A DNA stretch of 64,000 bases from Gigantopelta aegis (taxonomy: Eukaryota; Mollusca; Gastropoda; Neomphalida; Peltospiridae): the NCBI RefSeq assembly GCF_016097555.1, contig NC_054709.1, positions 30,176,207 through 30,240,206 on the forward strand, in the 5' to 3' direction. The notes under the pieces are model-generated. The model searched no databases. It had not been told where the DNA came from and saw nothing but the letters and a program-made list of their open reading frames with translations. Made by a program: the position numbers and the translations under genes. This document shows positions 1-44,000 of this stretch, piece by piece. Every line of letters starts with the position of its first letter. Positions within the stretch are counted from its first letter, which is position 1.

Positions 1-292
1 TGTGTTATAGGGGAGATGTATAAGATCTGCTGTGTTTGTGTTGTAGGGGAGATGTATAAGATCTGCTGTGTTTGTGTTATAGGGGAGATGTATAAGATCT
101 GCTGTGTTTGTGTTGTAGGGGAGATGTATAAGATCTGCTGTGTTTGTGTTACAGGGGAGATGTATAAGACCTGTGTTTGTGTTATAGGGGAGATGTATAA
201 GATCTGCTGTGTTTGTGTTGTAGGGGAGATGTATAAGATCTGCTGTGTTTGTGTTGTAGGGGAGATGTATAAGACCTGTGTTTATGTTGTAG
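1..292 (+). repeat. Tandem array (36-bp unit) carrying the DNPEP acceptor site
   Basis: About eight head-to-tail units of 36 bp (some 30 bp) run from the window edge into the exon at 293. Each unit contains gtgttgtag followed by GGGAGATG, which copies the real intron end (tttatgttgtag then GGGATCG). Each unit therefore holds a candidate 3' splice site; the last copy is the real one. The left edge of the array is outside the window. The unit length is a multiple of three, which is why it reads as a cysteine-rich open frame; I do not think it is translated. Confidence 0.85.
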
Positions 293-394
293 GGGATCGT
301 CATCAAGTTCAACTCCAATCAGCGCTACGCCACCACGGCCGTCACTGCAACCATCCTACGAGAGATCGCCAGAAAGGTGGATGCTCCACTTCAG
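293..394 (+). CDS. DNPEP: DNPEP exon (third from last)
   Basis: 102 bp, phase 0 in and out, reading [19 protein letters not shown] and onward to DAPLQ. The acceptor is ttgtag before 293; the donor is CAG|gttggaag after 394. The exon begins exactly where the 36-bp border array ends. Confidence 0.93.
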
Positions 395-41000: not shown

Positions 41001-44000
41001 GAAAAGTCTAGAAAATTATATGTGGGACAGATGGACAGACAGGTAGACAGTCAGACAGGCAGACAGATGGACAGAAAGAGAGACAGACAGATAGACAGAT
41101 GGACATTCAGACAGATGGACAGACAGTCAGATAGAAAGACAGACAGACAGTCAGACAGATGGACATTCAGACAGATGGTCAGACGGATGGAGACAAAACC
41201 TATAGTCTCCTCCAGTTGGACTGGTAAGAGATTAATAATGTTTTTATTTTTATATCTGACAACAGAGTTGTCTACCTTTGCTTCGACTGGTATGGAGTCT
41301 TCCTCGGATCCAGACTTTCTCGTCGGCCCGACTCGGCGTGAGGCCGCTCACTCGGTGCAGTGTGCGGTCCACTTTCTCCCTAGACTGGATCATCGGCAAA
41401 TTCCCGTAGAAATCCTTCGCATAGTCTTCCGTTTCAACGTCCTGCATAAAATATAGGTCATGCAGGCCTTCTAGAAATTTTTATTTTTAATTTTTTTTTT
41501 TTTTTTATTGTCCCCAGAAACATAAGCAAGGTCAAGGTTGGGGCCTTGAATCTATGCTGTACATGGTATTATTGTATATACATAAACAATACATAATTAA
41601 AGCTATACACTCGTATATAAAGCACTTATTAAACAATATGTGTATACATATGCACGTGCGTGTGTGTGTGTGAGAGAGAGAGAGAGAGAGAGAGAGAGAG
41701 AGAGAGAGAGAGAGAGAGAGAGAGAGAGAGAGAGAGAGAGAGAGAGAGAGAGAGAGAGAGCGAGAGAGAGAGCGAGAGAGAGAGCGAGAGACAGACAGAC
41801 AGACAGACAGACAGACACACTAGGCTTTAGGAATTTTTATAAAATCCACTAGCCATGGAATCAGTGATTAAAAAACATTACTAGTTACAATAAAAAATTC
41901 ACTAGCCCGACATTACTTTGAGTTAATACAATTTGATTAAATAATAGTAATAACTGGATATGTAACCTAAAGAGGCAGATAGAGCTTTAAAAACAGAAAC
42001 AATGATGGGTTGGAGCAAGGGCAGGATATTGATATTTACAAAATAGACTTAACTGCAACATTTGACAAAAAAGGTTCACTAGCCGTCGGGCATGGCAATA
42101 GTAGTTATTTACTAGCCCAACATTGAATATTATTAGCCATGGGAGTGGGGCTACCATAATCTAGAAGATTTGGGTTATGTTCATGTACAGATAGGGAGGT
42201 AAGCCGCTACATTTTCCATTAAAGGGATCTTTTATTAAAAGTTTGTTTTGTTTAACGACACCACTAGAGCACATTGATTAACTGATTTATTAATCATCGG
42301 CTATTGGATGTCAAACAAAATTAACACTTACTTTGTTTTAAAGTTTGTCTTGATTTAATGACACCACTAGAGCATTGATTTATTATTAATCATCGGCTAT
42401 TGGATGTCAAACATCTGGTCATTTTTGACATATAGTCTGAGAAGAAACCTGCTACATTTTTCCATTAGTAGCAAGAGATCTTTTATATGCACTTTCGCAG
42501 ACAGGATAGCACATACCATGGCTTTTGACCAGTTGTGGTGCACTGGCTAGAATGAGAAAAAACCAAATCACCAGGGTCGTTTGATCAGGATTCATGCGAC
42601 GCAAACACCTCAAGCAAGCACTCAACCAACTGAGCAAAATCCTGCCTTTTATATGCACCATCCCACAGACAAGATAGGACATACCACTGCCTTTGGTATA
42701 CCAGTCGTAGTGCATTGGTTGGAACAATGAAAAAACTGGATACCCTGAGGTGGTTTGATTCTGTAACACAAGTACCTCAAGAGAGCACTACACCTGTTCA
42801 TGTACAGCATACGTACACAAAATTAACACTTAATAATTGCTGCAACAGGGTTCATAGCCTTAAAGATCAAACAAATTCAAAGACGTTCAAAGACTTTTAC
42901 CTGCCACTTTCAAAGACTTTGACACAGCGGTCAACGACAATAGAATGCGATAAAAATACCAAATCAGTTCGTTTACATTGCTGTCCATGGCAAAACATTT
43001 AGCTATATTACATGCATCATGACAGATTAAACCTTGTGACTGGAAAATATCAAGTGCATGCAGCTGTAAAAGATACCATTATTGCTTTGGCTATGATTTG
43101 TGAGAATTTAAAGACTTTTAAACACTTTTATTACAATTCAAAGACTTTCAAATGCCTAAAAAATAATTTTTTAAGACTTTCAAGGAATTAAAAGACCGCT
43201 ACAAACCCTGTACAATAATACTTAATTAAGGTCGACAACAGCAGGGCTCGAAACAGGAAGCAAACTATGGCCTGCTGTTACCTTTTTTAAGATAGCCGGT
43301 AATAAGGACGAAATGAAACATGGTGTGAAACGACTCGGTTAGAGGTACAAATCTACTCAGGTTAAACCAACCAAGGTGAACTAGTAATAAGGGCGAAACG
43401 AAACATGGGGCGAAACGAAACATGGGGCGAAACGACTCGGTTAGAGGTACAAATCTACTCGGGTTAAACCAACCAAGGTGAACTAGTAATAAGGGCGAAA
43501 CGAAACATGGGGTGAAACGACTCAGTTAGAGGTACAAATCTACTCGGGTTAAACCAACCAAGGTGAACTAGTAATAAGGGCGAAACGAAACATGGGGTGA
43601 AACGACTCGGTTAGAGGTACAAATCGACTCGGGTTAAACCAACCAAGGTGAACCAGAAATAAGGGAGAAACAACCTGTTACCTCTGGTTGTACAAGCTGT
43701 GTTGGTTTATTATTAAATGCAAATGACTGTAAAAGACTGAGCTGCTCACTGCATGCGACTGCTGATCTTTACTAAGTTGAACTTTCTGACTACTGCAGGC
43801 AAGATATCTTGCCTGTTGTCACAACATACTGTACACTGTATACAGTGCATTCCCCAATTCATATTTCCCTCCATTTTGCACACGACAAACAATTTATTAA
43901 TGGGAAACGAAAGACAACTTTTCCTGTGTCTTTAAACTTTGTTTTTCAATGGAAAATACCTCAGAATTTTTAATTGAAAAAGTGTTTTTTTGCTTGACAA

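What the first reader, a model, noticed from the sequence alone, without database searches (positions are those of the whole stretch)
1..41441. Recurrent minisatellites built from exon-intron borders in two neighbouring genes
At least six arrays (DNPEP acceptor; DARS1 exons 4 acceptor, 4 donor, 7 donor, 8 acceptor, 10 donor, 13 donor) have units that contain the exon edge plus its splice site, and each starts at the authentic site. Always the exon-proximal copy is authentic and decoys extend into the intron, so donors and acceptors are affected as mirror images. Unit lengths differ (21, about 30, 32, 36, 53, 62, 69 bp) and sequences are unrelated, so this is one process acting repeatedly, not one repeat family. 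Intron gain or change by tandem duplication of an AGGT-bearing segment is an existing idea; an ongoing, array-forming version of it in one locus is not something I know described.
Basis: partly seen in the sequence, partly recalled or inferred. Interest (0 to 1): 0.93.

Follow-up and report, generated by a model that had tools for sequence, protein, structure and literature searches.

The report
Minisatellites anchored at exon edges
In this mollusc-like genome, arrays of short repeated DNA start near exon edges several times more often than random placement would give, and some copy real splice sites many times over; the kind is known from amphioxus as 'mirages', but here it recurs in several unrelated genes.

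Summary
The DARS1 exon model is sound: 13 modelled exons give an open frame matching human DARS1 at 767 bits. Of the seven borders named, four carry an array with at least 10 exon nt, a fifth only through a degenerate copy, and two do not (4 nt and 1 nt).

I modelled nine further genes plus the rest of DNPEP. In these ten genes (106 introns, 68 arrays), 11 arrays overlap an exon edge by at least 10 nt (random placement 2.6), and 31 end within 60 bp of or over a border (random 9.5, maximum 23 in 4000 draws). Array starts are about equally dense from -45 to +60 bp around the border, and about fourfold rarer beyond. Base composition and detectable transposons do not account for this; a simple survival model fits poorly. 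Measured by coverage, however, borders lie in arrays less often than random intron points.

The kind is already described: 'mirages' in amphioxus genes. The claim that it is undescribed is wrong. New here are the apparent phylum, the number of genes and the bounded zone, whose cause is unproven.

The parts
40743..40845 (-).
   Evidence: model, AG before and GT after
40830..40951 (-). 27-bp array crossing the acceptor of the 40743-40845 exon by 16 nt
   Evidence: TRF; overlap; 2 intronic copies of the border word, both with AG
40579..40743 (-). 18-bp array beginning at the donor of the 40743-40845 exon; many units repeat GTAAGT, 1 exon nt only
32526..32697 (-).
31158..32483 (-). 69-bp array, 19 copies, 42 bp from the donor at 32526; a degenerate copy extends over the border
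   Evidence: extension score 45 against shuffle maximum 31
28271..28405 (-).
28369..29539 (-). 62-bp array crossing the acceptor by 37 nt; 17 intronic copies of the border word, all with AG
25497..25565 (-).
25193..25510 (-). 32-bp array crossing the donor by 14 nt; 9 intronic copies, all with GT
19736..19847 (-).
12841..19760 (-). 7-kb array of a 53-bp unit crossing the donor by 25 nt; 125 intronic copies of the border word, all with GT; the searched part (18800-19860) matched only this locus
1..296 (+). 36-bp array at the DNPEP acceptor (exon from 293); contains the AG but only 4 exon nt
293..394 (+). DNPEP exon (start set by hand at the AG)
39610..39916 (.). 23-bp array 58 bp inside the intron from the donor at 39975 (near class, no exon part)
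32751..34396 (.). 80-bp array 53 bp upstream of the acceptor at 32697; a degenerate copy reaches to 9 bp from the border
21008..21368 (.). 45-bp array 16 bp upstream of the acceptor at 20991
11127..11593 (.). 42-bp array 52 bp upstream of the acceptor at 11074
3490..3678 (.). 28-bp array 48 bp upstream of a DNPEP acceptor

Best explanation
These are exon-anchored minisatellites of the kind called 'mirages' in amphioxus. A short segment (about 15-120 bp) lying within roughly 60 bp of a splice site, sometimes spanning it, is duplicated in tandem. The pair then expands by ordinary unequal exchange or slippage into a locus-private array. A duplication that spans the border is tolerated only while the copy touching the exon body keeps working, so the authentic site is exon-proximal and the decoys run into the intron; donors and acceptors are therefore mirror images. 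Shown: the arrays, the exon frame, mostly intact decoy sites, recurrence in unrelated genes, and an excess of array starts within about 60 bp of borders. Inferred: the duplication and expansion steps, and that the excess reflects more births there (a seeding zone) rather than longer survival. A possible cause is repair or recombination confined to the exon and its transposon-poor flanks, the parts likely to stay alignable between divergent haplotypes; I could not test that.
For: Ten genes apart from DARS1 (106 introns, 68 arrays): overlap by at least 10 exon nt 11 (null 2.55, maximum 9 of 4000); within 60 bp or overlapping 31 (null 9.54, maximum 23). Five CCT genes fetched without sight of their sequence: 6 of 8 arrays within 60 bp (null 1.66, p 0.001). 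Density of array starts per kb with TE-like sequence removed, all 11 genes: 1.60 (-45 to 0), 1.98 (0-30), 1.85 (30-60), 0.44 (60-100), 0.38 (100-200), 0.38 (200-400), 0.48 (>400). Without DARS1 the 0-60 to >100 ratio is 3.9, p 5.7e-6; without DARS1, DNPEP and one further gene, KARS1 removed in a second step, it is 4.0 (p 5.3e-5) and then 3.2 (p 1.5e-3). In introns of at most 600 bp after collapsing arrays (11 genes, DARS1 included) 14 of 15 arrays are near (null 6.9). Units mutually unrelated; three searched arrays private or nearly so. GC of near units 0.350, deep intron 0.363. Decoys mostly keep GT or AG, e.g. 125 of 125, 34 of 35, 31 of 31, 28 of 28.
Against: By coverage, borders are colder than introns: in the first five of these genes 9-11% of positions within 10 nt of borders lie in arrays against 19-30% beyond 60 bp; over 11 genes 30 of 236 borders have an intronic copy of their 24-base word against 766 of 4179 (18.3%) random intron points. 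Genes differ: CCT4 (11 introns) has no array, CCT7 none near; DARS2, NARS1 and NARS2 alone are not significant for overlap (p 0.25, 0.47, 0.25) and DARS2 and NARS1 not for proximity; overlap in the CCT genes is 1 against 0.64. Near arrays have more copies (median 8.3 against 3.5, p 0.003), which a survival advantage would also give. TE masking rests on self-comparison of about 335 kb of fetched sequence, so low-copy elements are missed. One genome only.
Confidence: 0.55

Rival explanations
1. Anchored survival: tandem duplications arise evenly, but arrays touching a border cannot be removed by large deletions because those also hit the splice site, so they persist.
For: Near arrays are longer (median 307 against 170 bp) and have more copies (8.3 against 3.5) with no significant difference in percent match. 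In my loss model, settings with short deletions give little excess beyond 60 bp, as observed.
Against: All 12 settings of the loss model fall smoothly from -45 bp outward; none gives a plateau to +60 and a step. Relative to the deepest bin, mean deletion 1500 bp with common loss 0.1 gives 8.6, 7.4, 5.9, 4.5, 3.2, 2.0, 1; mean 150 bp with 0.02 gives 5.3, 3.5, 1.8, 1.3, 1.1, 1.0, 1; observed 3.3, 4.1, 3.9, 0.9, 0.8, 0.8, 1. The model is mine and simple, and the bins hold few arrays (13 at 30-60 bp, 4 at 60-100). On rechecking, the short-deletion settings came closer than I had first written, so I raised this rival from 0.20 to 0.25 and lowered the best explanation from 0.60 to 0.55.
Confidence: 0.25
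2. Dilution: introns were short when the arrays arose, and later transposon insertions, which avoid splice sites, pushed the rest of the intron away.
For: TE-like sequence rises from 3% at 0-20 bp to 45-51% between 200 and 800 bp and is 38-41% beyond.
Against: With TE-like sequence removed the excess of 0-60 over >100 bp stays 4.5-5.4 fold in 11 genes; it also holds in introns of at most 600 collapsed bp. A step between 30-60 and 60-100 bp would need nearly all sequence beyond 80 bp to be later insertion.
Confidence: 0.1
3. Chance: arrays are so common that some fall on borders, and only the exon-proximal site can survive, so the pattern looks special without being so.
For: Arrays cover 11-40% of each of the five regions first examined; per point, borders are less covered than introns.
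Against: Counted per array origin in collapsed introns, border overlap and proximity are about 4 and 3 fold above random placement.
Confidence: 0.07
4. Selection for function: extra splice sites or repeated binding sites next to exons help splicing, so such arrays are kept.
For: Decoy sites mostly stay intact and often as strong as the authentic site (simple score).
Against: Intact decoys are also what homogenised arrays give without selection; most borders (206 of 236) have no such copies; CCT4 has no arrays.
Confidence: 0.03

Closest known systems
Amphioxus 'mirages' (minisatellite-like tandem duplications of exon-intron boundaries): Adh3, BflGb6, BflGb9, TnC, PGBD5
   Same: Units span the exon-intron border; both 5' and 3' borders; varied unit length (10-72 bp in Adh3, 150-160 bp in globins); many copies carry AG/GT; RT-PCR there suggested that regular splicing is not disturbed (PMC3087553 and PMC3902484, passages read).
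   Different: Apparently a mollusc; several unrelated genes in a small sample; one array of about 7 kb; a near-border class without exon sequence; a measured zone of about 60 bp. Length differences between haplotypes, somatic instability and mRNA evidence are reported there, not obtained here.
[quoted passage not shown] potato RdRp PMC4974935, search listing with start of abstract)
   Same: A tandem duplication copies an AG/GT-bearing segment.
   Different: That process makes a new intron from exon sequence. Here existing introns hold the extra copies; no new intron position is shown.
Ordinary intronic minisatellites, e.g. the 27-bp array in intron 3 of abalone TSSK1-like (PMC6905558, passages)
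   Same: A minisatellite in a mollusc intron, variable between individuals there.
   Different: The passages read do not place that array at a splice site.

Membership tests
Amphioxus-type mirage | Tandem units include the exon edge and the splice site | tested here: met
Amphioxus-type mirage | Both donor and acceptor borders affected | tested here: met
   array starts 10-60 nt inside the exon: 7 at donors and 7 at acceptors; 0-60 bp into the intron: 8 and 15 (score at least 60, before CCT7 was added)
Amphioxus-type mirage | Decoy copies carry AG/GT signals | tested here: met
   exceptions among borders with several copies include 0 of 2 at one DNPEP acceptor and 2 of 3 at one DNPEP donor
Amphioxus-type mirage | mRNA uses only the authentic site | not testable with these tools
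   no transcripts; only that the exon-proximal site gives the full DARS1 frame
Amphioxus-type mirage | Copy number varies between alleles or somatically | not testable with these tools
   a single assembly, no reads or second haplotype
Intron gain by tandem duplication | A new intron at a position without an ancestral intron | not tested
   intron positions were not compared with relatives; the tool states this genome has no relatives held
Dispersed repeat or transposon family | Units related to each other or found at many places | tested here: not met
   38 units with no related pair; three arrays searched genome-wide: one matched only its own locus, two had only weak or short matches elsewhere. 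The DNA search skips very common words, so this is not proof of rarity

The most novel reading that the evidence does not exclude
Exon borders are genuine hotspots for the birth of tandem duplications: a bounded zone from about 45 bp inside the exon to 60 bp inside the intron seeds minisatellites several times more often than the rest of the intron, across the genome. It may arise because DNA repair between divergent haplotypes ends where the conserved exon island ends.
Probability: 0.4. Interest if true: 0.8.

Novelty: new member of a known kind. Interest (0 to 1): 0.57.

Why it matters
It extends border minisatellites from a few amphioxus genes to an apparent mollusc, where they are common enough to measure. 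Arrays with as many as 125 similar donor copies beside the one that keeps the reading frame would be natural tests of exon definition, since at donors and acceptors alike the frame-keeping copy is the one touching the exon; RNA is needed to show usage. If the seeding zone is real, exon edges are mutation hotspots, which bears on intron length, splice-site turnover and models of intron gain. Decoys could also mislead gene predictors.

Tried and rejected
The first nulls (whole arrays placed at random in full-length introns) were replaced by a collapsed one (each array shrunk to one unit), because arrays grow from a small nucleus; all gave an excess. Point coverage gave the opposite sign and is reported. 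GC bias rejected. A deep-intron stretch searched genome-wide to estimate hidden transposons was saturated by one high-copy repeat and told little; a second such search did not complete. Papers on earthworm metallothionein introns, C. elegans intronic minisatellites and gastropod hemocyanin introns (passages) describe no border arrays in what I read. The original mirage paper (Adh3, 2002, recalled) was not found under an identifier recalled from memory. Literature searches for prior art: (open-licence papers only).

Rows set aside: from the DNPEP model two low-similarity exons and one 14-nt exon were dropped and one exon start set by hand; from DARS1 a 9-nt exon was dropped (models, dropped). 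One DNPEP donor (concatenated coordinate 32282) is poorly placed (donor score 0) but is counted among the overlaps. Of the PF00152 hits, a single-exon match on C2 and the matches on contig C977 were not used. Of nine multi-exon CCT clusters I modelled five, mostly compact ones, before seeing their sequence (CCT7 was added after the result for the other four); a sixth was asked for and not granted.

Full report
What was checked. The window is G000:C11:30176207-30240206 of a 1.149-Gb genome. A haemocyanin beta-sandwich domain of the kind I recall as molluscan is present (PF14830, 5 matches on contigs C2783 and C5121), so 'mollusc' is plausible but not proven. DARS1 lies on the minus strand. Thirteen exons were placed by hand from tblastn anchors and splice dinucleotides. 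They give a 481-residue open frame that matches human cytosolic aspartyl-tRNA synthetase at 767 bits. A spliced aligner that I wrote found the same internal borders, plus one 9-nt exon that I judged spurious.

The seven borders. TRF against this model: four of seven named borders lie inside an array with at least 10 nt of exon (16, 37, 14 and 25 nt). One (donor at 32526) has an array 42 bp away whose degenerate first copy crosses the border. Two do not contain the exon edge: the DNPEP acceptor (4 nt) and the donor at 40743 (1 nt). Unit lengths, in the order acceptor and donor of exon 4, exon 7, 8, 10, 13, DNPEP, are 27, 18, 69, 62, 32, 53 and 36. Four further arrays in DARS1 end 16-58 bp from a border. 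In all, 10 of 12 DARS1 intronic arrays are within 60 bp of or over a border; random placement of collapsed units gives 1.7.

Independent genes. Because DARS1 suggested the pattern, I fetched other genes by family search without looking at repeats: four other aaRS genes hit by PF00152 (KARS1, NARS1, NARS2, DARS2), the rest of DNPEP, and five of nine CCT clusters. Models. In these ten genes there are 106 introns and 68 arrays (TRF score at least 60, period at least 10). Null: each array shrunk to one unit and dropped uniformly on collapsed introns, allowed to overlap the exon. Result: overlap by at least 10 nt 11 against 2.55; contact with or overlap of the border 14 against 3.54; within 60 bp 31 against 9.54 (maximum 23 in 4000 draws). 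CCT genes alone: 6 of 8 within 60 bp against 1.66 (p 0.001), though only 1 overlaps by at least 10 nt (null 0.64, p 0.50). Per gene (arrays, near, overlapping by at least 5 nt): DARS2 16, 3, 1; KARS1 9, 7, 4; NARS1 9, 4, 1; NARS2 6, 3, 1; DNPEP 20, 8, 3; CCT3 2, 1, 0; CCT4 0, 0, 0; CCT5 2, 2, 1; CCT6 3, 3, 0; CCT7 1, 0, 0; DARS1 12, 10, 4.

The zone. Counting the border-proximal end of each array per available bp, the density over all 11 genes with transposon-like sequence removed is 1.6-2.0 per kb from -45 to +60 bp and 0.38-0.48 per kb beyond. The ratio 0-60 to >100 bp is 4.5 (p 7e-8) for all 11 genes, 3.9 without DARS1, and 3.2 without DARS1, DNPEP and KARS1 (p 1.5e-3). Transposon-like sequence rises from 3% next to the border to 45-51% between 200 and 800 bp; this dilution is corrected for only as far as about 335 kb of fetched sequence, compared with itself, reveals repeats.

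The opposite view of the same data. In the first five of the ten genes, positions at borders lie in arrays about half as often as deep-intron positions (9-11% against 19-30%), with the same direction in DARS1. Over 11 genes, 30 of 236 borders have a copy of their own 24-base word in the intron against 18.3% of random intron points (single distant copies among the 30 are likely chance). The two views differ because a long array covers many intron points but began at one place.

Decoys. In border-crossing arrays most intronic copies keep GT or AG, and often a site as strong as the authentic one by a simple score: e.g. 125 of 125 intact at the DARS1 19736 donor, 34 of 35 and 15 of 15 in KARS1, 31 of 31 in CCT6. 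Copies were chosen by similarity to the border word, so this leans towards intact sites. Exceptions: at a NARS1 donor 28 of 28 keep GT but none is as strong as the authentic site, likewise 0 of 6 at a CCT5 donor; at one DNPEP acceptor neither of 2 copies keeps AG. The exon-proximal copy is the one that continues the reading frame. That follows from selection and does not require a special mechanism (inference).

Private arrays. The 38 near-border units compared show no relation to each other. In genome-wide searches a kilobase of the DARS1 53-bp array matched only its own locus; the KARS1 50-bp array its own locus and one 66%-identical place; the CCT6 93-bp array its own locus and six short or weak matches. 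The tool skips very common words, so this is not proof of rarity. A search with the 62-bp array did not complete.

Mechanism. Local tandem duplication plus expansion is the plain reading. The question is why borders. A survival model in which deletions reaching the splice site are purged gave a smooth decline in all 12 settings, not a plateau and step; short-deletion settings come closest but predict too few arrays at 30-60 bp. Near arrays do have more copies. Composition does not differ much. I therefore favour a seeding zone, with moderate confidence. The idea that repair between haplotypes is confined to the conserved exon island, and misfires at its edges, is inference without a test.

Prior art. 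Tandem repeats spanning exon-intron boundaries were named 'mirages' in amphioxus Adh3; two globin genes, troponin C and PGBD5 show them, at both 5' and 3' borders, and length instability is reported (PMC3087553 passages; PMC3902484 passage). I saw no report of them in molluscs, nor of a border-distance profile, in the listings, which cover open-licence papers only and show capped lists.

Noticed in passing
window 29913-30305: A roughly 390-bp stretch in a DARS1 intron has 38 other listed matches at 94-98% identity across the genome (40 of 12,261 first-look candidates were scored), probably a young high-copy transposable element; translated pieces of a similar sequence recur through the window.
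   Followed up: partly
window 36984-37853, + strand: A 289-codon stop-to-stop open stretch inside a DARS1 intron, opposite to the gene; perhaps a transposon remnant.
   Followed up: no
window 12379-12416: A run of 38 G about 50 bp from the donor at 12469.
   Followed up: no
window 62944-63996: A 61-bp array running to within a few bases of the window end, outside the genes modelled here.
   Followed up: no
L025-L028 joined to the window, upstream of window position 1: The stretch holding DNPEP contains 5000 N, and the large DNPEP intron that ends at window 292 contains N; human DNPEP residues 305-363 found no match there, so exons are probably missing.
   Followed up: no
contigs C758, C861, C950, C1023, C1076: CCT-family matches with in-frame stops over short spans on high-numbered contigs suggest genes with small introns, possibly from another organism in the assembly.
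   Followed up: no
C14:11193042-11194824 and C8:5664244-5665081: The KARS1 donor array has one 66%-identical counterpart elsewhere; it could be an older copy of the same array.
   Followed up: no
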